DNA of 64,000 nucleotides from positions 2,294,001 through 2,358,000 of the forward strand of contig CP082962.1 in the NCBI GenBank assembly GCA_021730285.1, in the 5' to 3' direction. The translations under genes and the position numbers were made by a program. Source of the stretch: Desulfovibrio sp. JY (GTDB lineage: Bacteria > Desulfobacterota > Desulfovibrionia > Desulfovibrionales > Desulfovibrionaceae). The notes below the pieces were generated by a model. It did no database searches. It worked only from the letters and a program-made list of their open reading frames with translations, and was not told the origin of the DNA. Of the stretch, positions 12,779 to 37,400 are shown one piece after another (the first letter of the stretch is position 1; each line of letters begins with the position of its first letter).

Positions 12779-13438
12779 TTACACTCCCTCCTTTTTCAGA
12801 CTCTTCTTGAACGCCTCGGGATCGAGGCCGAGACGCGAACACACGGCCAGATCGATCTCGCCGAGCTGCCCATCGGCGGCCGGCGGCTGGCCGTGCGGAC
12901 CTTCCTGGCCGGGCTTGACGATGGACGGCGCAACCGCCGCGAAAGCCTTGAATCCTTCGAGGTCCTTGGACGCGTAGGCCAACGCCCAATCCTTGTTGCC
13001 GGGCGTGACCTTGCCGGCCTTCATGGCCGCTTCCACTGCCTCAACGGCCTTGTCTTTGGCCTGGCTGTTTTCCAGGGCCGCAAGGCGCGAGGCCACGGCT
13101 TGCAGCTCGGACACGGGAGCCCACTTGGTGGGATCGGGGCTGGCGTCCGGCTGGCCCCGCTTGGCGAGGACGTCCCTGGCGCAGGCGGCCAGCTGGGCCG
13201 GCTTGACCGGATCGGACATCCCCATGGCCTTGGCGGTTTCCTCGACGGCGGCCAGGACGTCGGCCAGGGCCTTGTCGGCTTCATAGGCCATGGCGGTTTC
13301 GGGGAGCCCCAGGCGTTTGGCCATGGCGGCGAGGCTTTTGGCCTCCCCCTGGGCGCACGTGACGATCCCTTCGGCCGTCGTGTCGGGCTTGAGCCCATAC
13401 GCGGCAGCCAGGGCGGCAATGACCTGTTCGAGGGTCAT
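12779..13438 (-). CDS. nested in-frame scaffold protein (Mu gpZ-like)
   Basis: Within the protease gene, the codon for MTLEQVIAALAAAYGL is preceded by GGAGGAGAA directly before the ATG at 13,438, a better ribosome site than that of the full-length gene. Starting there gives a 219-residue, helix-rich, acidic and Ala-rich protein lacking the protease domain. Mu makes its scaffold (Z) in the same way from the 3' part of gene I. The site is seen in the sequence; separate translation is inferred. Confidence 0.7.
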   Translation of the reverse strand: MTLEQVIAALAAAYGLKPDTTAEGIVTCAQGEAKSLAAMAKRLGLPETAMAYEADKALADVLAAVEETAKAMGMSDPVKPAQLAACARDVLAKRGQPDASPDPTKWAPVSELQAVASRLAALENSQAKDKAVEAVEAAMKAGKVTPGNKDWALAYASKDLEGFKAFAAVAPSIVKPGQEGPHGQPPAADGQLGEIDLAVCSRLGLDPEAFKKSLKKEGV

Positions 13439-13915
13439 TTCTCCTCCGTTGGGGTTATGGAGCCTGCTGGCCAGGGCCTGCATCTCCAGTTCAGGGGTAT
13501 TGGTAAGGGCCGCGTGCTCAATGCGCAGGACGCGACCATCCACGTCGAACCAGAAAACAGGCGAAAGGTATCGATATTCTCGGGCAGCGATGCAGGCCTC
13601 CGCCGTCGGCGTCCATTCCACGCGAGCCCAAATACCGTCGTCCCGCACCGCAAATTCTTTGAACCAGCCTGCGGCCGGCGCGGGGCGGCCGTTGTCGCGG
13701 CTCCAAAGGATTTGGTGGTCGTAGTCGATGGGCAGGTCCGCACCCGAAGCGGCGGCCAAAGTGGCGTCGATGACACTCTGTGGGTCATTCAGTTGAAATG
13801 GCCCGATCCCACTCCGGCCGGCGAATGAACCGGCGGGCATGACCTGGACCCATTCAGGAGCCTCGCCGGCATTGCCGGCGGCCAACGGGAGGGAGTTTAC
13901 AGCGCGTCGCAACAT
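12779..13915 (-). CDS. phage protease/scaffold (Mu gpI-like)
   Basis: 378 residues from ATG at 13,915; the frame stays open to a TTG at 13,960, but that codon lies inside the promoter-like palindrome. The N-terminal half fits the Mu I protease family (FQLNDPQSVIDATLAA, LPIDYDHQ, WARVEWTPTAEACIAAREYRYLSP). The C-terminal half is helical and scaffold-like. An internal ATG with a very strong ribosome site divides the two halves. The ATG is only 9 bases from the proposed -10 of the late promoter, so translation may be close to leaderless. Confidence 0.92.
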   Translation of the reverse strand: MLRRAVNSLPLAAGNAGEAPEWVQVMPAGSFAGRSGIGPFQLNDPQSVIDATLAAASGADLPIDYDHQILWSRDNGRPAPAAGWFKEFAVRDDGIWARVEWTPTAEACIAAREYRYLSPVFWFDVDGRVLRIEHAALTNTPELEMQALASRLHNPNGGEMTLEQVIAALAAAYGLKPDTTAEGIVTCAQGEAKSLAAMAKRLGLPETAMAYEADKALADVLAAVEETAKAMGMSDPVKPAQLAACARDVLAKRGQPDASPDPTKWAPVSELQAVASRLAALENSQAKDKAVEAVEAAMKAGKVTPGNKDWALAYASKDLEGFKAFAAVAPSIVKPGQEGPHGQPPAADGQLGEIDLAVCSRLGLDPEAFKKSLKKEGV

Positions 13916-13924
13916 GGCCCGGAC

Positions 13925-13971
13925 CCTAGCGGGCCGGGCGGCAGGATGCAGGGCGGACAACTGTCCGACCC
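13925..13971 (-). promoter_or_regulatory. putative late promoter for head/tail operon (PI-like)
   Basis: Leftward element upstream of the protease gene: a dyad CGGACA-AC-TGTCCG at 13,954-13,967 within a GGG/CCC frame, then exactly 23 bases, then GCTAGG (13,930-13,925), then 9 bases to ATG. The same arrangement with identical spacings occurs before the lysis region at 22,662-22,704. The position matches Mu PI, which is activated by the Mor-family protein C through a dyad next to the promoter. The -10 assignment is tentative. Confidence 0.7.
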
Positions 13972-14274
13972 AAACGGGTTCTCAACGGAGGGGATGCGTG
14001 GGAGGAAAACGAGGTTGCGATCCGGGTAACCCCATTGGACGGCCAGAGGCAACCCCGGACATACCCCGCAAACGCGTCAGACCATGTTTACTAGGCGATT
14101 TACTGGTTTTTACGGCCGTCGCCCTGGCTTCGCTTGCCCCGGGCCGAAAACGGGCTTATATTGCTCTTGACCTTTTTGACCGCCCTGTTTGGCCGGATAA
14201 TTCGCTCCCGGCTGAGTTTGCCCCGCCCTGGCAGCGGGAAAGCTCCGGGTGGGGGTGGCGTCCCACCAGGGCGG
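13972..14274. other. gene-free stretch between head genes
   Basis: About 300 bases without a convincing gene, unusual in this tightly packed region. It holds a + strand promoter-like pair and a + strand terminator (listed separately as a candidate small RNA). In Mu the gpG gene occupies this position; here gpG is at 10,251. Open frames crossing the stretch on either strand have poor composition. Confidence 0.6.
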
Positions 14275-14286
14275 TTATTTTATTCG
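14134..14286 (+). ncRNA. candidate small RNA on + strand, promoter to terminator
   Basis: TTGCCC (14,134-14,139), a 17-base spacer and TATATT (14,157-14,162) form a sigma-70-like promoter. About 60 bases later CCGCCCTGG (14,223-14,231) pairs with CCAGGGCGG (14,266-14,274), with an inner GGTGGG/CCCACC stem, and is followed by TTATTTTATT: a good intrinsic terminator on this strand only. The predicted RNA is about 115 bases and antisense to the intergenic part of the late transcript. No coding frame fits. Expression is not known. Confidence 0.4.
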
Positions 14287-15618
14287 CTCGTACAGCCCGG
14301 CGTTATCCAAAACGGCCGGGTCGATGATCCGACCGGACCGCACGTCGTTCGTGACGATGCGCACTCTCGCCCCAGCCGCGTCATGCGCCTTGGCGGCATA
14401 GTTGACCTGCACCACCAATTTCCCCGCCGACTCCTCGCCGGCATCGATCAGATACAACAGCGCCGGGTTGGCCTTGTCCCAGTAAATCGCCTCCGGCTCC
14501 CAGAGGGCGTCCACGGCGCGCGCGATAACCTCGCGGGGCAGGCCGATGCCGCTTGCCCGCTTTGTTTCGCGGTAAATGTGGGCAATACCCGCTTCCGAGA
14601 GCGTGATGGCCCCGCTGGACAGCTCGACCGCCTCGCCTCCGGCGCTGGCCCGGCCGGCCGCGAAAAACTCCAAGACCTCATCCGGCAGCGCCCCGACAAC
14701 CCGACGTTCACCGGTTTTTATGGGCGTCCCGGCGGCCAGGGCATCCAGGCGCGGCTTGATCCAGTCCGCCAGATCGCGCTTGAGCGCCGGCACCACAAAC
14801 CGGGCGCTGGCGGCCTGGGCGGCGGCCATATCCGGCGAGGTGTCCACGAGCTTACCCATCATGGCCCGGGCCGCGTGGCCGTCGAGCGCCGCCTCGCCCG
14901 GGTTGTAGGCAAAGCCCGGATCGATGCCGCGCGGGATCATTTGCGTCTCGCCCGTGCGGTCGTTGGTGTAGAGGGTCAGGTCGTCCTCGGGATCGGGCGA
15001 CACCTTGTAGCCAAAGGCTTCTAGGTCGTGGGCCGAAAGCTGGATGGTCGAGCACCGGCAGTGCCAGCCATTAGGTGGATAGTGGGTCTTCCACCAAGGG
15101 TGATCGACCGGCAGGACGGTCCCATTCCAAGCGCGGTGTTGAGGGCGCGTGACGCCATCCAGAATGGCCGAATAAAGCAGGTAGGGCGCGTACTTCTTGG
15201 CCCGTTGTATGCGCGCCCATTCGCCAGCCGCCTGGGACATGCGCATGTTGGTGTCGTAGATGATCTTGAGTCGTCGTGGGCTGCCGAGTTGCACGTCCTT
15301 GACCTCGCCGGTCAGCGGGTCCGCTTTTTCCATTTTGCCCCACCATCCTTTCGCTTGCAGGATAGGGGTCAGTTGGGCCGAAAACTGTTTGAGGGTCAAG
15401 CCTTGGCTGATGGCCGCGTCGGTCGCGGCCTGGATATCCTTGAGCACGTCGAAGCCGGCCGTTTTCGCCACGGTAAACGCCGTGGCATGCTCGGCCTGCC
15501 ACATGTCGCGCCAGTCCCAGCTTTCGACCTGGTTAAATCCCTTGGCCTTGAAATAGGCAATGGCTTCCTCGGGCGGGAGCGGCTGGAAACGGATAGAGCC
15601 ATCGTCATTTGTCGCCAC
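14275..15618 (-). CDS. MuF-type minor head protein with toxin-like C-terminal domain
   Basis: 447 residues. Residues 1-200 are the SPP1 gp7/Mu gpF head morphogenesis domain, with the Cys pair in PPNGWHCRCSTIQLS (187, 189). Residues about 305-447 form an extra domain (EAIYWDKANPALLYLI, KLVVQVNYAAK, RVRIVTNDVRSGRI) resembling the phage Barnase/EndoU/ColicinE5-like nuclease domains often fused to MuF proteins. The first part joins portal and capsid; the second may be an effector delivered with the virion, as proposed for MuF polymorphic toxins. Start overlaps the portal gene by 14 bases. No separate immunity gene is obvious beside it. Confidence 0.88.
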   Translation of the reverse strand: MATNDDGSIRFQPLPPEEAIAYFKAKGFNQVESWDWRDMWQAEHATAFTVAKTAGFDVLKDIQAATDAAISQGLTLKQFSAQLTPILQAKGWWGKMEKADPLTGEVKDVQLGSPRRLKIIYDTNMRMSQAAGEWARIQRAKKYAPYLLYSAILDGVTRPQHRAWNGTVLPVDHPWWKTHYPPNGWHCRCSTIQLSAHDLEAFGYKVSPDPEDDLTLYTNDRTGETQMIPRGIDPGFAYNPGEAALDGHAARAMMGKLVDTSPDMAAAQAASARFVVPALKRDLADWIKPRLDALAAGTPIKTGERRVVGALPDEVLEFFAAGRASAGGEAVELSSGAITLSEAGIAHIYRETKRASGIGLPREVIARAVDALWEPEAIYWDKANPALLYLIDAGEESAGKLVVQVNYAAKAHDAAGARVRIVTNDVRSGRIIDPAVLDNAGLYERIK

Positions 15619-17203
15619 TGTCCGCCCCCGTTTCGCCGCCCAGCCTCGCCATAAACGTCATGCGGGCCAGATGCTCGGTCAAGGGGCCGGCATCCTGGCC
15701 GGCCAGGGCCTCGGACAGGCGGCGCTGAAACTCCTCCAGGCTGGTACATTCGGCGAGCAGGCGGCGCACCGGTTCCAGAAGCGGGTCCACCAACTCCTGC
15801 CAATCGTCCAGTTCCTCGGCCACGGCCACGTCCACGGCATCCATGGGCCGCTCGGGCGCGGCAGCCTGGGGCGTGGCGGCATTGACGGCCCGGCGCGAGG
15901 CGGCAGCCTGCCGGCCCGAGGGCGCATCCCCGGGATCGGGCTGCGCCGGATCGGCGGTAGCTCCCTGGCCGGGGGCGTGGAGCAGCTCCTCATCCGGGGC
16001 TGGATCGGGCAGGCCGTATTTGTCGCGGATCGTGGACATCCCGACCTTAAGCCCCAAGGGCACCAGCGTTTTCAAATTCTCGGCCAGGGCCGTCAGGTCC
16101 TCTTCATCTTCGCGGCGGATAATGATCCGAGGATAGTACCGGCGCGGGCCGAGATTGAGGTCGACCATCGGCCGCACAAGGTCGCGGTTGAGGGTGGCGG
16201 CCAGTTGCCGGGCGTCAGCCGCTTCGATGTCGCGGCGCACCTCTTCGTGGGCATTGGCCGTGCCCACGTGCTGGCCCACATCCGTGGTCCCCGTTTGGCC
16301 GAGGACGGCCTTGGAAACCTGCTTGTCCAGGAAGTTCGCCAAGTTCTCGAAAAGCTGGATCGAACCCGAAATCTTGGCCTCGATAAAGTCGATGGACATG
16401 GAGGCCGGGATGATGGCCGCCGCGTCCCGGGAGATGGAGCGCACGGCCTGGAGGAGCACCTGCTTGTCCCGTTCGGACGCGCCCGGGCCGTATTTCCCGA
16501 CGCGCAGGGGCACGCCGAACACCTCGGCGAACTCCACCCAGCTCTTCAAATCGAAGTTTTTGAAGAGGTAACACCAAGCGCTGACCCTGGCCAAACCGCC
16601 ACGAATGGGCAGGCCGCTCTTGGATTTGTGAACGTGGGAAATGTACTTGTACGGCGAGAGCGGCACGGGCTGGCCACTTTCGGAAAGGAGCATGGGCGTG
16701 CGGCCATCCACGCGATCGAACTGGAACCATTTGGGGTCACGCCATTCCAGACGGGCCGGGAACCACTCCCCCCCCGAGGTGTCCCAAATGATTTCCGTCT
16801 CACTGAATGCCTTTCCGACCGCATCGAGCACGTCGAAAAGCTCGTCGGCCAGCTCGTCGCGGTTGAGCCAGTCGCGGACCAAGTCCGCCGCTTTGACGTC
16901 CTCGGCCGAGTCCGTGGCCGAAGCCACAGTAATGTCCAATCCGGCGACCTGATTCTTCCGCGTACTGAGCACACTGCGGTAATGGGGGTCGCGCTCCTCC
17001 ATGTCCTCGGCAAGCTCCAGATATTCGGTCGGGTCAAACTCCTCGGCCGCGCGCAGCAGCCGGGCCAGCCGTCCCGGGGTAAGCCCGGCTGCCGGGTGGC
17101 CGGACAGCACTTGGCGCACGCCGGTCACAGTCGGTCCGGCTTCCTCTTCCTTCAGCCGTCCCGTGTCCACGGGCCGGCCCAAATGGTCATATAGCGTCGG
17201 CAT
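15605..17203 (-). CDS. portal protein, DUF935 family (Mu gp29-like)
   Basis: 532 residues from ATG at 17,203, overlapping the terminase stop as ATGA. Typical DUF935 segments include EDMEERDPHYRSVLSTRK, KAFSETEIIWD and GGLARVSAWCYLFKNFDLK. The portal ring is the DNA entry gate of the capsid. The C-terminal 120 residues are low-complexity (Pro/Ala/Gln) and then helical, extending beyond the core fold. Confidence 0.95.
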   Translation of the reverse strand: MPTLYDHLGRPVDTGRLKEEEAGPTVTGVRQVLSGHPAAGLTPGRLARLLRAAEEFDPTEYLELAEDMEERDPHYRSVLSTRKNQVAGLDITVASATDSAEDVKAADLVRDWLNRDELADELFDVLDAVGKAFSETEIIWDTSGGEWFPARLEWRDPKWFQFDRVDGRTPMLLSESGQPVPLSPYKYISHVHKSKSGLPIRGGLARVSAWCYLFKNFDLKSWVEFAEVFGVPLRVGKYGPGASERDKQVLLQAVRSISRDAAAIIPASMSIDFIEAKISGSIQLFENLANFLDKQVSKAVLGQTGTTDVGQHVGTANAHEEVRRDIEAADARQLAATLNRDLVRPMVDLNLGPRRYYPRIIIRREDEEDLTALAENLKTLVPLGLKVGMSTIRDKYGLPDPAPDEELLHAPGQGATADPAQPDPGDAPSGRQAAASRRAVNAATPQAAAPERPMDAVDVAVAEELDDWQELVDPLLEPVRRLLAECTSLEEFQRRLSEALAGQDAGPLTEHLARMTFMARLGGETGADSGDK

Positions 17204-18810
17204 CAGTACGCTCCCCGGCCGAACCGCGCCCGGCCGCAAAATGCGTTGTCGTCGTCCTCACTGTCGTCACCACCGCCCTGGCCAGGGTGGCCGGCGTCAC
17301 CAAAAGCGGGTGTGTAGCCGTATTCGATTCGCTCCTGGCGCGTGGCGTAATATGCCAGGACGCCAGCCACCGCCGAGTCGCCGTGCCGGTACTGGCCGTC
17401 GCTACCCTTGACCCGTGCGCCGGATATCCCGGGTTTCCCCTGGACCAAGACCACCATGCGGTGATCGGCAATAACGTCTTCGTTGGCGTCCAGGCGCACA
17501 AGCTCGGACTCCATGGCCTGCCGGTATTTCGGGAACCATTCTGCATACCAGGAAGCCGAGAACATGACGCATTCCACCCGGTCCGGCCCATACTTCTGCA
17601 AGGCGGCCTCCGCGTGGCTTTGGCCGTTCCCGCGCGCGTCGAAGGCCGCCTTTTGCATAAGCGGGATGTTGTCCAGGATGTAAAAGGTGATGAGCTGTTG
17701 CACGTCGAAAGGGATATTGCGCAGCTCCACGGCAAATACCTGCCGCCAATGTCCCGGCCGGTCCTCTTGCCAGATCCAATCCACGGACAAGTCGCCGGAC
17801 CGGGCGAAGTCCTGGCTGTAAACTGTGGGTTTATCCGTGTTCAGGGCATCAATGATCGGCTTGAGGTTGTCCGTGATCCACCTGTCGGCTTTTTCAAGTC
17901 GCTCGGGATCAACCACAAATTCGGAGGGCTGTTGCCAGCGCAGCCGGGGGATGCCGTCGCTATGGCAGTGCTCCAATAAAAGCCGGGTGAAGAACGCGCC
18001 CGATCCACGTTTTGGGATGCAATCAAGCTCCTCGGCCGCATCCTCGGGGGTGGTATAGTCCGCGTAAATCTCTTCCCGGTAGATGGTCTCGGCCTGGGGG
18101 CTGTAGTCCTCTCCATTTACTAGACAGACACGCTGGTAAAATCCCTGGCGCAGGGCGTCGTCGAATGTGACCTTATGCAACGAGTACGGCAACTTTTTCG
18201 CCCTGACATCCTTGCAAAGCTGGTCAAAGACATTGTCCTCGCCGTCATGGGTGGACACGATATCGATGCGGCCGCCCCACATGCGAAAAGCCAGGGACCC
18301 TTTGATGACCTCCTGGAGGTTCTCGTGGAACGCCGCTTCATCTATGCGGGCATGGCCCTGACGGGAGCGCCAGTTATAGGGGCACGAGGAAAGCGCTTCG
18401 ATTTTGAAGCCGCTGGCGAGCTGAATTTTATAGGTAACGATGCTGCGCTTTTCCTCTTCAAGGATTGTCACGCCGATCTTGCTAGCCGCCTGCTGGTATG
18501 CCCGGATAAAAAAAGCGCAATCGCCGATAAACTCGGCGGCCATGGCCATGTTGTAGCCCATGTAAAACTGGTTCATGCCCCCCTTGGCCCGGGCGGCCTC
18601 AAGGGCTGCTTCTGCGGCCAGAGCACCCCAGGAAAACCCGATGCGGCGGGATTTCTCACAGATGCGAACCGGGGCTTCATCCCGATGCCAAGCCGCTTGG
18701 TACGGTAAGAGGATTTTCGGGACATCGGCCGGGGCAAGATTTTTGGTCGCCCGAGTTCGCTGGATGTCCTCGACGAGTTGGAGGGCTTCCTCCCGTTCGG
18801 TCGTGGTCAT
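17203..18810 (-). CDS. terminase large subunit (Mu gp28-like)
   Basis: 535 residues from ATG at 18,810, 2 bases after the small subunit stop; a GTG three codons earlier is an alternative. The ATPase region shows ICEKSRRIGFSWGALAAEAA, the atypical Walker A of Mu gp28 relatives. The nuclease half contains YSQDFARSGDLSVDWIWQ. The enzyme packages DNA into the prohead by cutting near the phage ends within host flanking DNA. The last 40 residues are Asp/Gly-rich. Confidence 0.95.
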   Translation of the reverse strand: MTTTEREEALQLVEDIQRTRATKNLAPADVPKILLPYQAAWHRDEAPVRICEKSRRIGFSWGALAAEAALEAARAKGGMNQFYMGYNMAMAAEFIGDCAFFIRAYQQAASKIGVTILEEEKRSIVTYKIQLASGFKIEALSSCPYNWRSRQGHARIDEAAFHENLQEVIKGSLAFRMWGGRIDIVSTHDGEDNVFDQLCKDVRAKKLPYSLHKVTFDDALRQGFYQRVCLVNGEDYSPQAETIYREEIYADYTTPEDAAEELDCIPKRGSGAFFTRLLLEHCHSDGIPRLRWQQPSEFVVDPERLEKADRWITDNLKPIIDALNTDKPTVYSQDFARSGDLSVDWIWQEDRPGHWRQVFAVELRNIPFDVQQLITFYILDNIPLMQKAAFDARGNGQSHAEAALQKYGPDRVECVMFSASWYAEWFPKYRQAMESELVRLDANEDVIADHRMVVLVQGKPGISGARVKGSDGQYRHGDSAVAGVLAYYATRQERIEYGYTPAFGDAGHPGQGGGDDSEDDDNAFCGRARFGRGAY

Positions 18811-18812
18811 GC

Positions 18813-19367
18813 TCACGATGGGTCGACCTCCACCCCGAGGATTTGCGCCCGGATCAACCCCCACTGTTCCGGCGTCAGCCCGGCCTGATCCGCTGCGCCT
18901 TGAGCCGCTTCGGCGGCCTTCTCCAGGGCTTCTTTCCTGGCCTGCTCACGAATCTTGATCTCGGTGTCCAGGCCGATTTTGGAGCCCGCGGCCAAGTCCT
19001 TGATGGCCTTGGCAAGGCGTGCGGCATCAATGGCATCAATGGCGTCACCGTCGCGCAGCTTGGCGACGCCCGCCTTGAACACCAGCCGATGCACGATTTC
19101 GATCAGCACGCGCCCCATATCCCCCTCGGGGACTTCTCCCAGCTCACGCGCGAAAGCCGAGGCGATCTCGCGGCTTTCCCGGATATGCGCGGCGACCTCT
19201 TCGAACTCCTGGGAGTACCTGCCGACGGCGGATCGGGAGACCGGCGCACCCAGTTTTTGCAGGTGGGCAACAATCTGATCCAGGGTATGCGCTCCCCCGG
19301 CCAGCAGCCGGTCCAGTTCCTTGCGGATCGGCGCGGGCAACGTCTTGATCTTACTCCTGGACGGCAT
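18813..19367 (-). CDS. terminase small subunit, DUF3486 (Mu gp27-like)
   Basis: 184 residues from ATG at 19,367 (AGGTAGCGGT upstream). It starts MPSRSKIKTLPAPIRKELDR and continues with a helix-turn-helix region (LGAPVSRSAVGRYSQEFEEV), as in the DUF3486/gp27 family. It recognises packaging DNA and works with the large subunit encoded next. The C-terminal part is a long Ala/Glu/Lys helix ending LTPEQWGLIRAQILG. Confidence 0.92.
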   Translation of the reverse strand: MPSRSKIKTLPAPIRKELDRLLAGGAHTLDQIVAHLQKLGAPVSRSAVGRYSQEFEEVAAHIRESREIASAFARELGEVPEGDMGRVLIEIVHRLVFKAGVAKLRDGDAIDAIDAARLAKAIKDLAAGSKIGLDTEIKIREQARKEALEKAAEAAQGAADQAGLTPEQWGLIRAQILGVEVDPS

Positions 19368-19371
19368 ACCG

Positions 19372-19665
19372 CTACCTCGCCCGGGGGCGCTTGACGCCCG
19401 GCACCGTCGCCCGGCCCTCGGCCACATCCTGGCCACGGCCGGTCAGTTGCACCACGGTCACTGGACCGACCTTCTCGACGTTTACGAGTCCCTGTTCGGC
19501 GAGCCAGGAACACTCGGTTTCCACGCTATCCCGCGAGCAGCCATGGCCGATCAGGTCCAAGGCATCTTGCAGCACCGACGTATTGAGCTTGTGGTCCAAA
19601 TCCTCAGCCAACAGACGTAGGATCACCAGTCGGCGATCCTGGGAAAACACTTCCGCCAAACCCAT
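19372..19665 (-). CDS. gp26-like phage protein (VpaChn25_0724 family)
   Basis: 97 residues. The pattern of a winged-helix fold (RLVILRLLAEDLDHKLNTSV, SRDSVETECSWLAEQGLV) matches the small ArsR-like proteins found between DUF2730 and DUF3486 genes in Mu-like phages. Its exact role is unknown. The start overlaps the previous stop as TAATG. Confidence 0.85.
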   Translation of the reverse strand: MGLAEVFSQDRRLVILRLLAEDLDHKLNTSVLQDALDLIGHGCSRDSVETECSWLAEQGLVNVEKVGPVTVVQLTGRGQDVAEGRATVPGVKRPRAR

Positions 19666-20003
19666 TACTCCCTCCGATCGCGGCGATTACTGCCCAAGTG
19701 GTATTCGAGCAGGAGACTAAGCGGGTGTTCCACTCGTTTGAAAACCTCGGCCAGTCCCCGAAGCTCGGCAGCCTGTCCCTTGAAGTCGCCCCGTAGCCCC
19801 TCAACCTCCCTGGCCAAGTCGGTAAACGCCGTAGTCGAGGGCAGCCGTCCCATGTCCTCGGCCACTTCCTTGCGACACTGACGACGGCAGGTGGCGCAGG
19901 ATTCAACCGTGACGAACTTTCCGATCATCAACCACCAGACGCCTAGCATCACCGCCTGGGCCAGAGGGCCGATGATCGGCCAATACTGCAACAGCGTGTT
20001 CAC
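19665..20003 (-). CDS. DUF2730 family membrane protein (Mu gp25-like)
   Basis: 112 residues: one N-terminal membrane helix (IIGPLAQAVMLGVWWLMIG) followed by two CxxC-like pairs and a coiled coil (DLAREVEGLRGDFKGQAAEL). This is the layout of the DUF2730/gp25 family, often placed next to lysis genes, and it may be a spanin-like or lysis accessory protein. It lies 12 bases downstream of the zinc-finger gene. Confidence 0.85.
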   Translation of the reverse strand: MNTLLQYWPIIGPLAQAVMLGVWWLMIGKFVTVESCATCRRQCRKEVAEDMGRLPSTTAFTDLAREVEGLRGDFKGQAAELRGLAEVFKRVEHPLSLLLEYHLGSNRRDRRE

Positions 20004-20015
20004 GCATCCTCCCCC

Positions 20016-20231
20016 TTACTTCTCGCTCACTTCCTGGCACCCACGGCACCGCGTGGCCCCAGGCACGGCGGCCAGCCGGGCGGCCGGGATCGGCTCGCCG
20101 CATTCGACGCAGACCACCCGGCCATCCTCGACAACCTGCCCACCGGCAGGGGCCGGGCGCGCGGCGGCCGTCAACGCCGCCTCCCTGAAAAGCGCCTCGG
20201 CCGCCTGGGCATCATCGCCGATATCCGTCAC
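20016..20231 (-). CDS. TraR/DksA-type zinc-finger protein
   Basis: 71 residues from GTG at 20,231 whose GTGA overlaps the holin stop. The C-terminal half has CVECGEPIPAARLAAVPGAT followed by CRGC, the four-Cys zinc finger of the TraR/DksA family. Phage members of this size can bind RNA polymerase without DNA contact and alter host transcription. The N-terminal helix (DDAQAAEALFREAALTAA) matches the coiled part. Confidence 0.9.
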   Translation of the reverse strand: MTDIGDDAQAAEALFREAALTAAARPAPAGGQVVEDGRVVCVECGEPIPAARLAAVPGATRCRGCQEVSEK

Positions 20232-20656
20232 GCCCGGGGCTCCCTGGCACGGACCTTGGCGATGTCCACGCAGGCCTGCCAGCTGATATAGGCGACTGCC
20301 ACGCAGGCCACGGCAATCAGCTCCTGGGGCGACAGCCGCTTGTCCAGGGGTATCTGCGCAAGCATCCCCACAAGGGTCACGATGGCGACCCATACCTTCC
20401 GGCTTTTCCAGCCGCTTTCGGCCGAGGGCGGCAGGGTTGCCGCCATGTCGTCGAGCAGCTTGAGTTGGTCCTTGTTCACAATGCGCTCACCCGGATGTAT
20501 GAGCACCTCCGGCCCTGGCGTCCCGGGCGGGGCAGGCGGTACGACACCGCCCTTCATTCCCATTATGCGGGTCACGATTTCCTCGACTTCCGCGTGGGTC
20601 AGCCCGCCCATTTGGGACGCGGCCCGGGACAGCGTTTCCTTCTTCATGTCTTCCAT
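20228..20656 (-). CDS. putative holin
   Basis: 142 residues with GGAGGCGACC before the ATG. Two hydrophobic segments near the C-terminus (VWVAIVTLVGMLAQIPL and LIAVACVAVAYISWQACV) and a charged tail fit a class II-type holin. It lies directly after the transglycosylase, the expected lysis partner. The N-terminal 90 residues are soluble, longer than in many holins, so confidence in function is moderate. Confidence 0.65.
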   Translation of the reverse strand: MEDMKKETLSRAASQMGGLTHAEVEEIVTRIMGMKGGVVPPAPPGTPGPEVLIHPGERIVNKDQLKLLDDMAATLPPSAESGWKSRKVWVAIVTLVGMLAQIPLDKRLSPQELIAVACVAVAYISWQACVDIAKVRAREPRA

Positions 20657-20666
20657 GGTCGCCTCC

Positions 20667-21266
20667 TTATTCCGGCCACTGGCCGCCGGGGATCAGCGCC
20701 AGGATTTTGCCCGGGTACGGGCTGTCCAGCTGGTGGCGATTGCCGGGGCCTCCGTTGTAGGCGCGCATGACCGTGGGCCAGCCGCCATCGGCGAGGTATT
20801 TGTCCGCCAGCCGGCGCAGGTAGCGGCAGCCCCATTCCAGGCCGACCGCAGGGGTACACAGTTCCCCGAACCAGCCCCGGAAGCCGCAACATCGGGCCGT
20901 CTCGCCCATCACCTGCATGAGGCCCCAGGAGGTGGCCCGGCCGATCCGTTCGGTCTCCAAAGAGCAAAACTCCGGACGGAAATCGGGTGTTTCCCCCTTG
21001 AGGTAGCGCTCGTAGAATTGCGGCTCGAACCGCATGGCGGCCGGGATGCCGCCGGCCGATTCGTGGGCGACCATGGCCCGGACGAGCATGACCGGCAGCT
21101 GGTAGCTGGCGGCCATGGACACAACCAGCTCATCCTGGGTCGGAGCCGAGGCCGGCACGGGAGCCGTGGGCGAGGTGGCCGCCGGAGCGGCCCGCCTCTG
21201 TTGCAGCTCATCGCGGGCGGCGGACAGCGAATCCACAATGGTGTCAAAATCGATGGAAACTGGCAT
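20667..21266 (-). CDS. phage lytic transglycosylase (SLT fold)
   Basis: 199 residues. The SLT core shows catalytic Glu69 in MVAHESAGG, SWGLMQVM at 114-120 and RAYNGGPGN at 168-176. The N-terminal 45 residues are a Gln/Pro/Ala-rich linker without a signal peptide, so export would rely on the holin encoded next. It cleaves the glycan strands of peptidoglycan during lysis. Confidence 0.92.
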   Translation of the reverse strand: MPVSIDFDTIVDSLSAARDELQQRRAAPAATSPTAPVPASAPTQDELVVSMAASYQLPVMLVRAMVAHESAGGIPAAMRFEPQFYERYLKGETPDFRPEFCSLETERIGRATSWGLMQVMGETARCCGFRGWFGELCTPAVGLEWGCRYLRRLADKYLADGGWPTVMRAYNGGPGNRHQLDSPYPGKILALIPGGQWPE

Positions 21267-21285
21267 ATTCGTTCCTTTCTTTATC

Positions 21286-21346
21286 TTCCGGCTCCCGATA
21301 GGATATCTGTGCTACCTTCAACCCAAACCGGGAGGCGGAAGAAATG
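21286..21346 (+). promoter_or_regulatory. upstream element of + strand gene, shared with second copy at 31,179
   Basis: TTCCG (21,286-21,290) and GATAGGAT (21,297-21,304) are followed 27 bases after the TTCCG start by TAC, then TCAACCCA and GGGAGGCGGAAGAAATG. The same blocks in the same order stand before the gene at 31,248. It may be a shared promoter for genes expressed from the lysogen, against the direction of the phage operons. I cannot assign -35 and -10 boxes with confidence. Confidence 0.5.
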
Positions 21347-21622
21347 TCTTACGAATATCTATCTCCGTGCGTTCGAGGCAATGATGCCAAGGACATCTCA
21401 GAGAAATTGAATGCCGAACTTGCAAATCTTGCACGGGATGGATGGGAGGTTGTGCAACTTGTCCCCCTCACATTTGAACCACGCTTTCGGGAAATAAGCT
21501 CCAACCCACAAATACCCATGCCTCCTGCTCTAGATTCCTTCCAAACCACGACTATTCAAATTCTTCTGAGGCGACCTGTTTCCGAGTACAAAGGGCTTTT
21601 TCAAGGGTGTGATTTGTCATAA
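21344..21622 (+). CDS. DUF4177-like small protein, phage moron candidate
   Basis: 92 residues with a strong ribosome site (GGGAGGCGG). The pattern MSYEYLSPCV...LNAELANLARDGWEVVQL matches the small DUF4177 fold (aromatic start, a helix, then GWE and a beta strand). It is the only + strand gene in the late region and is lower in GC than its neighbours. Its 3' end overlaps the convergent 60-residue gene by 71 bases. Such genes are typical accessory additions expressed in the prophage state; its function is unknown. Confidence 0.8.
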   Translation: MSYEYLSPCVRGNDAKDISEKLNAELANLARDGWEVVQLVPLTFEPRFREISSNPQIPMPPALDSFQTTTIQILLRRPVSEYKGLFQGCDLS

Positions 21623-21734
21623 GGGCTGTATCAACAGTATACACCGGGGCGGTCAGCAGTCGTCTGACCGCCTTCATCTCTCTCAGGATCGCGTTCTGCA
21701 CGGCCATGTGCTGCTCGAACTGCTCGGGCGTCAT
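21552..21734 (-). CDS. small hypothetical phage protein
   Basis: 60 residues with an excellent ribosome site (AGGAGG, 7 bases before ATG). The N-terminal half is helical (MTPEQFEQHMAVQNAILREM). The C-terminal third overlaps the convergent + strand gene and may be the less constrained part. No family recognised. Confidence 0.65.
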   Translation of the reverse strand: MTPEQFEQHMAVQNAILREMKAVRRLLTAPVYTVDTALMTNHTLEKALCTRKQVASEEFE

Positions 21735-21744
21735 AGCAAGCCTC

Positions 21745-22188
21745 CTATTGTCCAGCCGCGCTCGTCACGGCCAGGGCCTGCACCGCGTCGGCCACCTCGC
21801 CGATGGCGCTTCGGGCCTTGGTCCAGAGCGTCAGGGCGTTTCCGAAGTTTCCGGCCTTGGCCGCCGCCTCAACGTCCGCCACCAGCCCCCGCGCCTTATC
21901 CAGCGCCTGTTCGACGACTTCCGCCGCATGGGGCGCGACGCTCGCCAGGGCGGCCAGCTTGTCCCGCAGCCCCGACACCGACGCCCACAGCCAGGTCAAG
22001 CCGGAATCCAGGCGCGCGGCAGTCGTGTCCGTCGCGGCCTCGGTTGTCGCCGTGTCCGGCCCCAGCGTGGACGCCTGGGGCGACGCGCCCGACGTCGAGC
22101 CCATGCCGCCAATCGTGCCCAGGCCGGAGCATCCGGCCAGCATCGCGGCCACACACACCACCACCAACAGTCCGATTATGCATCGCAT
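21745..22188 (-). CDS. phage lipoprotein
   Basis: 147 residues from ATG at 22,188, chosen because GAGGAG lies just upstream; a GTG at 22,203 is possible. A signal peptide ends in the lipobox LAGC (MRCIIGLLVVVCVAAMLAGC). The mature part is Ala/Thr-rich and then helical. As an early member of the late operon beside lysis genes it could be a spanin-type outer membrane lipoprotein, but it lacks the Pro-rich composition of classical Rz1. Confidence 0.75.
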   Translation of the reverse strand: MRCIIGLLVVVCVAAMLAGCSGLGTIGGMGSTSGASPQASTLGPDTATTEAATDTTAARLDSGLTWLWASVSGLRDKLAALASVAPHAAEVVEQALDKARGLVADVEAAAKAGNFGNALTLWTKARSAIGEVADAVQALAVTSAAGQ

Positions 22189-22199
22189 AAGACGGCTCC

Positions 22200-22652
22200 T
22201 CACCAGGGCGCGCGGCCCTGGCCGTTGTAGGGTTTGGCCAGTCCGCGCCGGACCATTTCCGTGGCCACGTCGCGCGTCTCGCCGTCGATTTGGGCCTCGA
22301 TGCCGGCCAGCAGCCGACAGTTTCCGTCGCGGCGCACGTCGCGCAGCACAACCGAGATGCCGGGCGGCAGGCGCGACGCCAGCCAGTCCCGGGCCAGCTC
22401 TGCCTGGGCACGGACGGAGGGACGGGGATCATGGATTTTTGGCAAGACGAGGCCGGCCACACGGACCTGGATCGGCGAGATGACCGCCGGCCAGGACGGC
22501 ACGGAAACGATCACGGTACCATCGTCGCGGACGTAGCCCACCACAGCCGGGACATTGTCGGCGTTGACCCGCTCTCCGGCGGCGATCCGGGGAGACCAGA
22601 CCGCCGCCAGGAGCAGGCACGCAAGTATGGAGGAGGCAACACGTCGCATCAT
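22200..22652 (-). CDS. exported SNase-like (thermonuclease fold) protein
   Basis: 150 residues with a signal peptide (MMRRVASSILACLLLAAVWS). The mature part follows the staphylococcal nuclease OB-fold pattern: VRVAGLVLPKI, a helix with AQAELARDWLASRL, GNCRLLAGIEAQIDG, and the closing VRRGLAKPYNGQGRAPW. The usual acidic residue in the IDxPE segment is replaced (LVLPK), so nuclease activity is doubtful. It is the first gene after the proposed late promoter, in the place of the Mu lysis region, and its ATG is only 9 bases after the proposed -10. Confidence 0.8.
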   Translation of the reverse strand: MMRRVASSILACLLLAAVWSPRIAAGERVNADNVPAVVGYVRDDGTVIVSVPSWPAVISPIQVRVAGLVLPKIHDPRPSVRAQAELARDWLASRLPPGISVVLRDVRRDGNCRLLAGIEAQIDGETRDVATEMVRRGLAKPYNGQGRAPW

Positions 22653-22661
22653 GGCGACGGG

Positions 22662-22704
22662 TTTAGCGGGATCGATGCAGGGGGGCGGGGCGGACAACTG
22701 TCCG
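22662..22704 (-). promoter_or_regulatory. putative late promoter for lysis/packaging operon (Plys-like)
   Basis: Dyad CGGACA-AC-TGTCCG at 22,691-22,704, then 23 bases, then GCTAAA (22,667-22,662), then 9 bases to ATG. The same dyad, flanks and spacings recur upstream of the protease gene at 13,925. The element follows the terminator of the early/middle operon and sits downstream of the Mor/C-like gene, the layout seen in Mu for Plys. The -10 call is tentative. Confidence 0.7.
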
Positions 22705-22786
22705 ACCCAATCGAGGGGAGGCGAGTATGGCCCATTTGCCCCAGGTCGGGGCAAGGCGTCAAGAGAGAGGACGCCTCATAAAAACC

Positions 22787-22818
22787 AAACGGCCCGCCAG
22801 TTTCCCGGCGGGCCGTTT
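22787..22818. terminator. bidirectional hairpin terminator after the early/middle operon
   Basis: AAACGGCCCGCC (22,787-22,798) and GGCGGGCCGTTT (22,807-22,818) form a perfect 12-bp stem with an 8-base loop. On the minus strand it is followed by GGTTTTTATG. It lies just past the last gene of the leftward early/middle operon and just before the late promoter, so it separates the two transcription units. Confidence 0.88.
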
Positions 22819-22836
22819 GTGTTTATTCACAATGTC

Positions 22837-23578: not shown

Positions 23579-24066
23579 GCCACACCCTCATAGCGTTCCA
23601 GATCATCTACCAGCACCGGCTCCCGCCGGCCAACCAAAAACACCTGCCAGCGTCCGTCCAACCCCTGCATTGGGTCCGTCATAACCACAACAGCCTCATA
23701 CAATGCCGCGCCGTCATCGCCACGGCCAAGCAACAGCCGCCGCCGGTCGCCGCGTCCGACATCCGGCCGGGGATCGTCCTGGCGCTGCGCCGGGACGCCA
23801 GAAAGCTTTTCACTCATTTCCATCAGCAAAACAAACAGTTCCGCATACGTCAAAAAAACGTATTTCTGGTTGGCCGAGCGCCACCAGCTGCGGCCGACCC
23901 GAACGCGGTATTGGCCGTCGAGGCGCTCGCCGCCCGGGAACAGCCGCGCCGGGAACAGTTCAATGGCCACCCGGCTGGTGGGGCTTTCGATGGTGATACG
24001 TCCCTCGGGCTTGCGCTTATCGGCCATTTGCGTCCTCATGCGCGCACAATACGCGTCATTTTCCAT
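23557..24066 (-). CDS. hypothetical phage protein
   Basis: 169 residues from ATG at 24,066, which overlaps the Mor/C-like gene's stop as TGATG. Contains GRITIESPTSRVAIELFPAR and a Trp/Tyr-rich centre (RSWWRSANQKYVFLTYAELF). Composition is that of a normal soluble protein. No family recognised; the tight coupling suggests it belongs with the activator gene. Confidence 0.7.
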   Translation of the reverse strand: MENDAYCARMRTQMADKRKPEGRITIESPTSRVAIELFPARLFPGGERLDGQYRVRVGRSWWRSANQKYVFLTYAELFVLLMEMSEKLSGVPAQRQDDPRPDVGRGDRRRLLLGRGDDGAALYEAVVVMTDPMQGLDGRWQVFLVGRREPVLVDDLERYEGVAWARNAR

Positions 24067-24485
24067 CAGAACAGGTTGTACTGATCGTCGCGGCCGTTTC
24101 CGGCCCCGTACTCGTTTTTGTGGCGGCGCACCGTGCGCGCATCGACTCCAGCCAGCCGCGCAACGCGCTGGCCCGAAACCCCTTGCGCCAGCCCTTCGCG
24201 GATGGCCCGGGCCACGGCTGCCTTGTTGCCGGAGAGCGGCCCGAGCGGCACCTCGAATTTCCCGCCGCCGCAACGCCGGGCGATAACCCGCGCGGCCTCC
24301 CAGCCGCAGGCGACCACCAGCCAGTTATCGTCCGTCAGCCGCTCAGGGCGCGGGAAATAGGTCTGCGTGCCGCCCTTGGCCTCGGCCACGCGATAGGCGG
24401 CCAGCTGCCCGGCCGCGTTGGCAATGTCAGCCAGGATACCCGGCCAAATGAGCCCGTCTGCGTCAAAAGGGCGAGTGGCCGACAT
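24066..24485 (-). CDS. Mor/C-family transcription activator-like protein
   Basis: 139 residues (AAGGCGG before ATG). It has the layout of Mor-family proteins: an N-terminal dimerisation region, GGTQTYFPRPERLTDD in the middle, and a C-terminal helix-turn-helix (GQRVARLAGVDARTVRRHKN). In Mu, Mor turns on the middle promoter and its paralogue C the late promoters through dyad sites. Only one such gene is seen here, so it probably does the late job, and the dyads at 22,691 and 13,954 are its natural targets. That link is inference. Confidence 0.75.
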   Translation of the reverse strand: MSATRPFDADGLIWPGILADIANAAGQLAAYRVAEAKGGTQTYFPRPERLTDDNWLVVACGWEAARVIARRCGGGKFEVPLGPLSGNKAAVARAIREGLAQGVSGQRVARLAGVDARTVRRHKNEYGAGNGRDDQYNLF

Positions 24486-34459: not shown

Positions 34460-37400
34460 ATGAGTAGGCGTTATTGCATATTATCGAAGAAAGAAAAGCG
34501 GAAAAATATTCGAAAGTTATCTATTGTGTGTAAATGTAGTATCATTTTTATGATTTTATGCACTGCATTGCAGCTGTTGCAATGTGTTGCTACAGCAGAA
34601 ACATACAGCCCTAGCGATTTGGGTACGCTTGAAGGTAATATAAGTACAGCAAAAGACGGAGATATTATTGATCTGAAGAACCTTGCCGATCAAACAAATT
34701 CACTGATAAGTGCGCTCGCTATTGGAACTTCAGGCAGTGTAACTCTGCAAAACACAAATGCAAAAGATGTAACTCTTGCTATCGGCGATGATACCATTCT
34801 CACCGAGAGTGATAATGTTATTACTCTGTCAAATTATACGAAGTTAACCCTGGGAGGGAACACAGACAAGGGGAATATTGTGTTAACCGCCTCGGGCTCG
34901 AGTAATTATGTGATTAATATCTCCAGTATGAACGCGGCGCTGAGCTCCATAGGCAAGAATGTCACCCTCTCCGTCGATTCGCACTTCCCGGCATACGGTA
35001 TTCGCGCTACTTATGGCATCAGCATCGACGGGGGGGTCTCCGGCTCCATCACCGCCACGGGGACCGGGAGTGGTGGCACCGCGTACGGCATATACGCTTT
35101 GGCAGGCGGGGTCAGCATCGACTCCATCGCCGACACGGGCCAAATCCAGGCCAAGGGGGCCCTCCAAGCTGCCGGACTCAGTGGGGCTAGCGGAGTAACC
35201 ATCACGCAGGATATGGCCGGCTCCATCACCGCCACGGTGACCGAGAAAGGCAGCAGCGCGTACGGCATGCTCGCTGCTGGCGGCGCGATCAGCATCGGCG
35301 GGGGGCTCTCCGGCTCCATCACCGCCACGGCGACCGGGGATGGTGGCCGCGCGTACGGACTTAAAAATGATGCCGGCAGCATCAGCATTTCCGGGCCGCT
35401 CTCCGGCTCCATCATCGCCACGGCGACCGGAAGTAGCGGCAGAGCGTACGGCGTTAGCACTCCTTCCGGCGACTTCAGCATTTCCGGGCCGCTCTCCGGC
35501 TCCATCACCGCCACGGCGACCGGAAGTAGCGGCACCGCGTACGGCATATACACTTCGGGAAGCGTCAGCATCGACTCCATCGCCGGCACGGGCCGAATCC
35601 TGGCCGAGGGGGCCGCGGACGCTGTCGGACTCAATGGGGCTAGCGGAGTAACCATCACGCACGATATGGCCGGCTCCATCATCGCCACGGCGACCGGAAG
35701 TAGCGGCAGCGCGTACGGCATGCTCGCTTATGGCCACGCGATCAGCATCGGCGGGCCGCTCTCCGGCTCCATCACCGCCACGGTGACCGGGGATGGTGGC
35801 CACGCGTACGGCGTTGCCATTTCTTCTATCGGCGACATCAGCATTTCCGGGCCGCTCTCCGGCTCCATCACCGCCACGGCGACCGGGGATGGTGGCCGCG
35901 CGTACGGCGTTAACACTTCTTCCGGCGACATCAGCATTTCCGGGCCGCTCTCCGGCTCCATCACCGCCATGACGACCGGGGCGGGCGGCGCCGCGCGCGG
36001 CATTTATAGCAGTAAGAGTCTCACGAACGGCTCGGGTGGCGCGCTGGTCATCTCCAGCACAGGTTCCGTTTCAGCCATATCCGACGGCATGGCCACAGCC
36101 GTTCTCTCCCACGGCCAGCTCCTGTTGACCGTCGAGGGAAAGCTCTCCGCCACGAACACCAGCGGCCACGTCTTCGACAGTGGTTACGCCATCCAATCCA
36201 GTTCAGGCAACGACGGCGTCACCTTGGCCGATGGGGCCACGATCATCGGCCGCATCGACCTGGGCTCCGGCAATGACAGCGACACCCTGAAGTTGCTCGG
36301 GACCCCGAATGCCGATACGAATATTCCCTTGATAAGCGGCGTCGAAACACTCGACGTCGGCGACGGGACAACGGCCACCAACTGGTCTCTCGCGCCGACA
36401 AGCGCAAGCTCTTTTACGACGACAACCATTTATACCAACGCCGCCCTCACCATCAACAGCAACGTCTCCCTCGGCGCGTTGACCCTCGACGGCGGTATGC
36501 TCCGTCCATCCGAAGACATGACCTATTCGGGGGACGTGGCGCTCTCTGTGAAAAATGGCACCTTCGACACCAACGGATACGCCATGACGCTTGCCGGCGT
36601 CGTCTCCGGTTCCGGCGCCTTGACCAAGACAGGATCGGGCACTCTGACGCTTGCCGGCACCAACACCTACACCGGGGCCACCAACATCAACGGGGGCACG
36701 CTGAGCATTTCCTCGGCGGCCAACCTGCAAGACACGAGCGGCATCACCCTTGACGGCGGCACGCTTCAGGCCACGAACACGCTGGCGCTTGACAAGTCGA
36801 TCGCCTTGGGCGCCAGCGGCGGCACCTTTGCAGTCGGCAACGGCAGCGACACCCTGACGCTTGCCGGCGTGGTCTCCGGTTCCGGCGCCTTGACCAAGAC
36901 AGGATCGGGCACTCTGACGCTTGCCGGCACCAACACCTACACCGGGGCCACCAACATCAACGGCGGCACGCTGAGCATTTCCTCGGCGGCCAACCTGCAA
37001 GGCACGAGCGGCATCACCCTTGACGGCGGCACGCTTCAGGCCACGAACACGCTGGAGCTTGGCAAGTCGATCGCCTTGGGCGCGAGCGGCGGCACCTTTG
37101 CAGTCGCCAACAGCAGCGACACCCTGACCCTTTCCGGCGCGATCACCGACGCCGTGCCGGGAACCGCCGGCTCCCTGACCAAGACCGGGGCCGGGACGCT
37201 CAAGCTCACCAACACCGGCAACACCTACTCCGGCCCGACCTTCATCAACCAGGGCACGCTGCAAGCCGGGGCGGTAAACGCCTTTTCCCCGAACTCCGTG
37301 GTGGTCCTGGCCAATGCCGCCGGGGCGACGTTGGACCTCAATAATTACGATCAGGTCATCGCCGGCCTTTCCGGCGGCGGATCGAACGGCGGCAACGTCT

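What the first reader, a model, noticed from the sequence alone, without database searches (positions are those of the whole stretch)
13915..22710. Two matched dyad elements define a candidate late regulon
CGGACA-AC-TGTCCG followed by exactly 23 bases, GCTARR, 9 bases and ATG occurs at 13,954 and 22,691, before the head and the lysis operons, the two places where Mu has C-activated promoters. Both coding regions then begin M-M/L-R-R. If GCTARR is the -10, the messages would be almost leaderless. The only Mor/C-type gene in the window (24,066) lies just upstream. I found no third copy by eye; Mu-type late promoters for the tail-fibre end would lie beyond base 1.
Basis: partly seen in the sequence, partly recalled or inferred. 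Interest (0 to 1): 0.78.

Follow-up and report, generated by a model that had tools for sequence, protein, structure and literature searches.

The report
Paired late-promoter operators in Mu-like prophage
Two identical mirror-image DNA sites in a Mu-like prophage are most likely the docking sites of the phage's own late-gene activator; many related phages carry such sites in their own spelling, matched to their own activator, and the head-protease message seems to begin right at its start codon.

Summary
CGGACA-AC-TGTCCG lies at 13954 and 22691, the only exact CGGACANNTGTCCG sites in the 4.69 Mb genome. Each precedes, at one fixed distance, an ATG: gene I (head protease) and the first gene of the lysis/terminase block.
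Relatives show what it is. A motif-free search finds matched dyad pairs, near gene I and upstream (usually just after the Mor/C-type activator gene), in 21 of 184 phages (null mean 1.1); an anchored relaxed search in 46 of 120 (null 4.8). Arms differ between phages, agree within a phage, and covary with recognition-helix residues of the activator (R117 with G3, R120 with G2). A -10 mark A..T sits at +27/+31 in 27 and 26 of 47 phages, 0-5 at other offsets. Gene I starts mostly at +38/+39 and lacks a Shine-Dalgarno. Phage B23 has such dyads at three places that match Mu's Plys, PI and PP.
Best reading: C-type late operators near -44 and a leaderless gene I message; a new variant of Mu's late system. 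A prediction recorded beforehand succeeded only in part. No bench data.

The parts
13954..13967 (.). Operator dyad CGGACA-AC-TGTCCG before gene I (head protease)
   Evidence: paired dyads in relatives
22691..22704 (.). Operator dyad CGGACA-AC-TGTCCG before the lysis/terminase block
13951..13973 (-). 23-base identical block TTGGGTCGGACAGTTGTCCGCCC, copy 1
22688..22710 (-). 23-base identical block, copy 2
13923..13928 (-). Inferred -10 element TAGGGT (26-31 after the dyad)
22660..22665 (-). Inferred -10 element TAAACC (26-31 after the dyad; A at 27 kept, T at 31 not)
12779..13915 (-). Gene I, Mu-like head protease (PF10123, E 4.8e-79); ATG at +39 after the dyad, inferred transcript start at 13916 or 13915
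22200..22652 (-). First gene after the second dyad: 150 aa, SNase-like domain (22.3 bits, cut-off 21) behind a signal-like N-terminus; ATG at +39
24066..24485 (-). Mor/C-type activator (phrog_836 late transcriptional activator, E 1.6e-13; Pfam Mor 20 bits, below its 24.9 cut-off); modelled helix 116-130 with R117 and R120
22786..22819 (.). Hairpin of 13-15 pairs with T-rich tails, terminator-like on both strands, between the activator gene block and the second dyad

Best explanation
The two dyads are the operators of the prophage's own Mor/C-type activator (24066-24485). A dimer binds the dyad at about -51 to -38 (centre about -44.5), in the place of a -35 element, and recruits the host sigma70-type RNA polymerase to a weak -10 at 26-31 bases after the dyad. 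This switches on two late operons: lysis/terminase/portal from 22.65 kb and head protease/capsid/tail from 13.9 kb. Transcription would begin at or one base before the start codon, so gene I is read from a leaderless message. Across Mu-like phages this arrangement is kept while the operator spelling changes together with recognition-helix residues of the activator (R117 with G at arm position 3; residue 120 with arm position 2: R-G, aromatic or H with T, E with C). Shown by computation: pairing, spacing, -10 marks, lack of Shine-Dalgarno, covariation. Inferred: binding, activation, transcript start, leaderless translation.
For: Only two exact sites in the genome, both in the prophage. CGGACANNTGTCCG exactly twice per locus, 7.9-12.0 kb apart, in L013, L038/L039, L043, L046 and L088/L089. 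Motif-free pairs of perfect dyads: 21 of 184 phages against a mismatched-phage null mean of 1.12, maximum 4 in 200; anchored search 46 of 120 against 4.8 at score 20 or more. A27..T31 in 27 of 47 gene I sites and 26 of 47 lysis sites, 0-5 at twelve other offsets. Gene I start codon (45 ATG, 3 GTG) at +38 (28), +39 (14), +37 (5), +40 (1) of 48 in a search restricted to 37-40; without that restriction in-frame ATG/GTG at 38 or 39 were counted 37 times in 69 loci. Gene I anti-SD energy median -2.8 (n=47), like random (-3.2); other ORFs -5.9 (n=294). Columns R117 (partial r 0.355) and R120 (0.27) exceed the permutation maximum 0.247 of 300. R117/G3: 29 both, 28 neither, 5 G3 only, 0 R117 only; within R117, R120/G2: 13 both, 15 neither, 1 R120 only, 0 G2 only. 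Held-out class score 16.82 against a permuted maximum of 15.70 in 5000. G041:C6: exact CGGACACCTGTCCG with ATG at +38 before a head protease of another family (phrog_976), plus a one-mismatch site after the activator gene. Named phages whose activators were not used for the rule: B23 (helix TERRVW, R117/W120) has CTGAAS-type dyads at three places and nowhere else in its record (Markov control mean 0.015, max 1 of 200), all three with A27 and T31; POA1180 (HERSAY, R117/Y120) has CTGACA-N-TGTCAG at three places (control mean 0.005). Mu precedent: Mor dyad centred at -43.5 and C dyads in Plys and PI (PMC4287176, passages; PMC4390567, abstract and passages).
Against: No binding, expression or 5'-end data. 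72 of 120 usable loci gave no pair at score 19 in the anchored search; some have the second site far from the activator gene, others have imperfect, differently spaced or no detected dyads. The recorded prediction failed for the two G001 loci (RTVRR helix, no dyad found in 13.7 and 7.4 kb after the gene; a head-protease ORF follows the activator gene directly), and in G041 the lysis-side site lies 3.2 kb after the gene, not within the 2 kb that I wrote; G077 (L120) gave no supported pair. Tree-controlled tests agree in direction but have too few independent pairs: on the portal tree R117/G3 3.8 of 4 and R120/G2 5 of 6, median p 0.125 and 0.0625; on the activator tree two pairs each. R117 with A at arm position 4 was also tried and is not supported. 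Columns A109, G38 and G39 score as high as the helix columns, perhaps as clade markers. L222 breaks the R120-G2 rule. The lysis-site -10 in the window lacks T31. Foldseek did not list Mor.
Confidence: 0.87

Rival explanations
1. The dyads are operators, but of another regulator (phage repressor, host LexA-like protein or another HTH protein) that represses or times the late operons.
For: A palindrome near a promoter is as typical of repressors as of activators; binding was not tested.
Against: Only two exact sites in the genome, so no host regulon. Arms covary with the recognition helix of the Mor/C-type protein. The place, about -44 and replacing a -35 element, is that of Mor/C sites.
Confidence: 0.07
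2. The dyads act in RNA, as terminator hairpins or other RNA structures between operons.
For: In L088 and L008 the lysis-site dyad is the core of a longer inverted repeat followed by T-rich sequence. A T-rich stretch follows many sites: at least 4 T in positions 3-10 at 19 of 47 gene I and 15 of 47 lysis sites.
Against: The arms are only 6 bases around a 2-base middle; extension beyond them averages 1.5 (gene I) and 2.0 bases (lysis); most sites have fewer than 4 T there; and the arms track a DNA-binding helix. In the window a separate terminator-like hairpin lies at 22786-22819. A double role at some lysis sites is not excluded.
Confidence: 0.03
3. Gene I is not leaderless: transcription begins further upstream and another start with a ribosome site is used; the fixed dyad-start distance is an indirect effect.
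For: Mu's annotated gene I and lys starts are preceded by Shine-Dalgarno-like sequence. Most lysis-site promoters lack a start codon near +38: 8 of 48 have one at 36-41 that opens at least 40 aa.
Against: A27..T31 marks appear equally at lysis sites, where no start codon constrains them; gene I shows no Shine-Dalgarno; annotated gene I starts of Thiobacimonas phage vB_ThpS-P1 (+39), Rhodovulum phage RS1 (+39) and phage B23 (+38) agree.
Confidence: 0.12
4. Chance or recent duplication: a 23-base block copied once within this prophage.
For: The two blocks are identical over 23 bases.
Against: The same arrangement occurs in phages with other arm spellings at the same two places, far above the null, and in some phages the middle bases differ between the two copies (L043, L088).
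Confidence: 0.01

Closest known systems
Phage Mu late promoters Plys and PI activated by C (PMC4461284, PMC4287176)
   Same: Activator family, dyad in place of the -35 element, weak -10, positions before the lysis operon and gene I; relatives such as B23 also have a site where Mu has PP.
   Different: Other operator sequence; two sites in the window's phage instead of four; no second Mor/C gene found in the window; gene I without the Shine-Dalgarno-like sequence that precedes Mu's annotated gene I.
Phage Mu middle promoter Pm activated by Mor (PMC4390567, PMC4287176)
   Same: Dimeric Mor-type activator on a dyad centred at -43.5 (here about -44.5 from the inferred start); no -35 element.
   Different: Mor's element is 16 bp with two 5-bp repeats around 6 bases; here 14 bp, 6-2-6. 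Here the promoters are late and paired.
Leaderless mRNAs (general class; mycobacterial work PMC4633059 seen only as a search listing with the start of its abstract)
   Same: Start codon at or next to the transcript start, no Shine-Dalgarno.
   Different: Here inferred for a phage gene, with the operator apparently fixing the distance to the start codon.

Membership tests
Mu C-type (Mor/C) activated late promoters | Phage-encoded Mor/C-family activator | tested here: met
   phrog_836 E 1.6e-13, matched by 46 of 46 aligned activators; Pfam Mor 20 bits is below its 24.9 cut-off for the window protein, 17 of 46 match Mor at E<=0.001; profile hits the Mor structure 1rr7 at E 0.0024 among many other HTH proteins, several with better E-values.
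Mu C-type (Mor/C) activated late promoters | Dyad replacing the -35 element, centred near -43.5 | tested here: met
   Centre about -44.5 from an inferred, unmapped start; -10 marks at 26-31 after the dyad.
Mu C-type (Mor/C) activated late promoters | Promoters before the lysis operon and gene I | tested here: met
   relatives.
Mu C-type (Mor/C) activated late promoters | Further late promoters (PP, Pmom) | tested here: not met
   No third exact or one-mismatch dyad in the window's prophage. Relatives B23 and POA1180 do have a third site, so this differs within the group.
Mu C-type (Mor/C) activated late promoters | Middle step: Mor activates C (two family members) | tested here: not met
   One Mor/C-type gene found in the window by profile search.
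Mu C-type (Mor/C) activated late promoters | Same operator sequence as Mu C sites | tested here: not met
   CGGACA-N2-TGTCCG is not in the Mu stretches read before lys and gene I; the Mu C consensus TTAT-N6-ATAA is recalled, not from a call.
Mu C-type (Mor/C) activated late promoters | Transcription depends on the activator | not testable with these tools
   Needs expression or binding experiments.
Leaderless mRNA | Start codon at the 5' end, no Shine-Dalgarno | tested here: inconclusive
   Spacing and anti-SD energies fit; the 5' end itself is not mapped.

The most novel reading that the evidence does not exclude
Mu-like phages share a minimal late switch of one activator and two (in some, three) operators, whose DNA specificity drifts so fast that close relatives no longer share it (42 arm changes among 62 phages on the portal tree), following a readable helix-to-base code. 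The operator also fixes the start codon of the head protease, which is translated from a leaderless message, and in at least one phage (G041:C6) the promoter cassette stays although the protease is of another family. The drift may insulate co-resident prophages from each other's late activators.
Probability: 0.55. Interest if true: 0.75.

Novelty: new variant of a known kind. Interest (0 to 1): 0.64.

Why it matters
It turns an eyeballed repeat into a rule that predicts where late transcription starts in many Mu-like phages, including unstudied ones, and which activator recognises which site. The Mor and C binding work that I found concerns Mu itself; the paired sites give dozens of natural activator-operator combinations for testing how this helix-turn-helix reads DNA. 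It also predicts leaderless translation of a head protease.

Tried and rejected
First dyad pattern had a 4-base spacer and gave only background. A third promoter in the window's phage: the two-mismatch site at 7868 lies inside an ORF, 79 bases before the tape-measure start, without the promoter marks; the one-mismatch site at genome 2284419 lies in an ORF outside the prophage as I judge it. Host regulon: rejected by the genome scan. Foldseek against PDB gave no match at E<=0.001, and Mor is not among the 50 rows shown of 212. Sinorhizobium phages Aussie and StopSmel, with another head module, gave no clear pair by a shared-word search. Rhodovulum phage vB_RhkS_P1 and Pelagibaca phage vB_PeaS-P1 share an element at the same places that is not a dyad of this kind. 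POA1180's dyads have a 1-base middle and were missed by the 6-2-6 search. R117 against A4 was tried without support.

Limits of counts. 258 loci were searched: 206 with gene I, 157 with an activator, 184 nonredundant by gene I, 120 usable with the activator upstream. The 21 pairs include L188, whose pair has no promoter marks. Searches looked for the second site only from -60 to +250 around the activator's end. The aligned set holds 49 loci, some near-identical. The covariation set is 53 phages (48 at score 19 or more, where about 7 false ones are expected, plus window, L088, L013, L046 and L008 added by hand), 47 after removing activators at 85% identity or more. The 62-phage set adds 15 R117-class phages from the 30 rows; six rows have fewer than 2 of 4 promoter marks: L046, L120 and L195 were already in the 47 and stayed, L188, L150 and L050 were left out (they would have fitted R117-G3). 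In R117 rows the best-supported of several pairs was taken, with promoter marks, not helix, deciding. Classes were defined after some held-out sites had been seen, so that test is not blind. Only the prediction was written down before the sequence was fetched: of four loci with the R117+R120 helix, G041:C6 passed on sequence (one mismatch in one site) but not on the stated distance, G041:C9 showed the lysis side only (CTGACATCTGTCCG, contig end), G001:C17 and C13 failed. G077, listed without a helix, has a single CCGACACGTGTCGG and no supported pair. B23 and POA1180 dyads were seen before their helices.
Full report
What is there. On the minus strand two copies of a 23-base block TTGGGT-CGGACAGTTGTCCG-CCC lie at 13951-13973 and 22688-22710. 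Each is followed at an identical distance by an ATG: 13915, gene I (Mu-like head protease, PF10123 E 4.8e-79), and 22652, the first gene of the block that holds a transglycosylase-type endolysin, terminase, portal and gpF genes. The dyad CGGACANNTGTCCG occurs exactly twice in the 4,686,982-base genome, at these places. A Mor/C-type gene lies at 24066-24485, and a terminator-like hairpin separates its block from the second dyad. The dyads lie where Mu has Plys and PI (Mu map).

Relatives. I fetched loci around portal and terminase homologues (searches kept the best 80 of 217, 523 and 579). With the exact motif, five further phage types carry CGGACANNTGTCCG exactly twice per locus, 7.9-12.0 kb apart (L013, L038/L039, L043, L046, L088/L089). 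A motif-free search, for palindromes near gene I whose arms recur upstream, found perfect pairs in 21 of 184 nonredundant phages; pairing phages at random gave 1.12 on average, at most 4 in 200 trials. Relaxed searches gave 41 of 120 against 3.0, and 46 of 120 against 4.8 when anchored on start codon and activator gene. Arms differ between phages (CGGACA, CTGACA, ATGACA, CTGAAG, CCGACA, CGCAAG, CCCGCC, GCGCAA, TGCCAT and others) and agree, wholly or nearly, within a phage. In a search limited to -60..+250 around the activator's end, 50 of 69 second dyads lie 0-29 bases after it. In the window, L008, L013, L046 and L088 the second dyad lies 1.2-2.2 kb further.

Promoter anatomy. Aligned on the dyad, position 27 is A and position 31 is T together in 27 of 47 gene I sites and 26 of 47 lysis sites; at twelve other offsets the count is 0-5. 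These are the two most conserved places of a sigma70 -10 element (general knowledge), so the -10 is at 26-31 (window TAGGGT and TAAACC), the start about position 38, and the dyad at about -51 to -38. Mor in Mu binds a dyad from -51 to -36 centred at -43.5 (PMC4287176, passages). Gene I has no Shine-Dalgarno signal beyond chance. So gene I would be leaderless or have a one-base leader. At the lysis side this holds for the window, B23 and some relatives (8 of 48 open at least 40 aa from an ATG/GTG at 36-41), not in general.

Who binds. In 47 nonredundant activators, after removing overall similarity, arm similarity is best tracked by R117 (0.355), A109 (0.350), G38 (0.289), R120 (0.270), G39 (0.264) and A116 (0.204); the highest value in 300 permutations was 0.247, so A116 alone does not exceed it. 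An AlphaFold2 model (mean pLDDT 84) puts 116-130 in the second helix of the C-terminal helix-turn-helix. All 29 phages with R117 have G at arm position 3, against 5 of 33 without it. Within them R120 goes with G at position 2 in 13 of 14; the 15 others (six Y, four Q, two F, one each H, E, I) never have G there. F, Y and H go with T, E with C, Q with T once and C three times, I with T. A contrast: the window activator is closer to L008 (64% identity) than to L088 (55%) or G041 (51%), yet shares R120 and the CGGACA operator with L088, and with one exact site in G041, while L008 has Q120 and ATGACA. On trees the informative contrasts for these two residues go the same way but are few: on the portal tree 3.8 of 4 and 5 of 6 (median p 0.125, 0.0625), on the activator tree two pairs each.

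Predictions. Class-specific dyads scored above all 5000 permutations in 44 held-out loci (16.82 against at most 15.70), though classes were defined with partial knowledge. A written prediction for Desulfovibrionaceae relatives was met in sequence in G041:C6: CTGACACTTGTCCG with TAGTCT at 26-31, 3.2 kb after the activator gene (I had written about 2 kb), and an exact CGGACACCTGTCCG with GAGGAT and ATG at +38, before a head protease of another family (phrog_976 E 4.5e-117). G041:C9 has the lysis-side site, then the contig ends. Both G001 loci failed, and G077 (helix with L120, no rule) gave no supported pair.

Named phages. Six records were read. Before gene I, Rhodovulum phage RS1 (+39), Thiobacimonas phage vB_ThpS-P1 (+39) and Alteromonadaceae phage B23 (+38) have a dyad at the annotated start; in Ochrobactrum phage POA1180 the annotated TTG is at +30 and an ATG at +39. 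RS1, ThpS-P1 and POA1180 have the partner 7-12 bases after the activator gene. B23 has exactly three matches to its dyad pattern, at 10242 (before the lysis region, ATG at +38), 17837 (gene I) and 28422 (between the N-like and the following tail gene, where Mu has PP), all with A27 and T31; a Markov control gave 0.015 on average. POA1180 has a third copy at 19464 before the tail sheath gene. The activators of B23 (R117, W120) and POA1180 (R117, Y120) fit the rule aromatic 120 with T2, and RS1 (DVSVRR) fits the CRCAAR class; none was used to make the rule. vB_RhkS_P1 and vB_PeaS-P1 show a different shared element and a different helix.

Literature. Nine searches listed work on Mu Mor and C; in the titles and abstract starts shown nothing described phage-specific paired operators, a Mor/C code or leaderless gene I in Mu-like phages. 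I opened only three papers, in passages: PMC4461284, PMC4287176 and PMC4390567 (abstract too). Other Mu-like phage papers listed were not opened, and subscription journals and preprints are not in that library, so novelty is judged on a partial view.

Verdict. The finding is real and its interpretation essentially right. It belongs to the broad Mor/C-operator kind but is not a copy of Mu's system: two promoters instead of four, one activator gene found in the window, other operator sequence, gene I apparently leaderless.

Noticed in passing
22200-22652 (-): The first gene after the lysis-side operator encodes a small SNase-like protein with a signal-like N-terminus; relatives were found in L007/L087 and L088/L089 but not in L008 or the other loci held. 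A nuclease at the head of a lysis block is unexpected.
   Followed up: partly
L088:3055 and L008:4727: The lysis-side operator is the core of a longer inverted repeat followed by a T-rich stretch, so operator and terminator of the upstream transcript may be one element.
   Followed up: partly
L279 (phage B23) 28422; L274 (POA1180) 19464: Third operator copies before tail genes; in B23 at the place of Mu's PP. The window's phage, with a long-tape-measure tail module, lacks one.
   Followed up: partly
window 35392-35954: CGGGCCGCTCTCCG recurs five times (spacings 93, 267, 96, 93) inside the large ORF 34460-39478 (+), a coding repeat.
   Followed up: no
L274 (Ochrobactrum phage POA1180) 5452: The annotated TTG start of the protease gene is probably too far upstream; the operator spacing points to the ATG 9 bases downstream.
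   Followed up: partly
L275 and L278: vB_RhkS_P1 and vB_PeaS-P1 share a CCCCCGAAAC-type element at both late sites that is not a 6-2-6 dyad, with a TAAYVHK/TAAWVHK-type helix; perhaps another operator type.
   Followed up: no
L269/L270 (G001): A short head-protease-like ORF (phrog_328 over residues 47-181) directly follows the Mor/C gene, an unusual order, perhaps a rearranged remnant.
   Followed up: partly
L271:14349-16679: Beyond base 1 the prophage seems to end with a DNA-methylase-like ORF and a patatin-like ORF (judged from the translations).
   Followed up: no
aligned gene I sites, positions 3-8 after the dyad: A TGTTTT-like stretch is conserved just after the dyad, at about -35 to -30 (T at 3 in 34 of 49, G at 4 in 32 of 49).
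   Followed up: no
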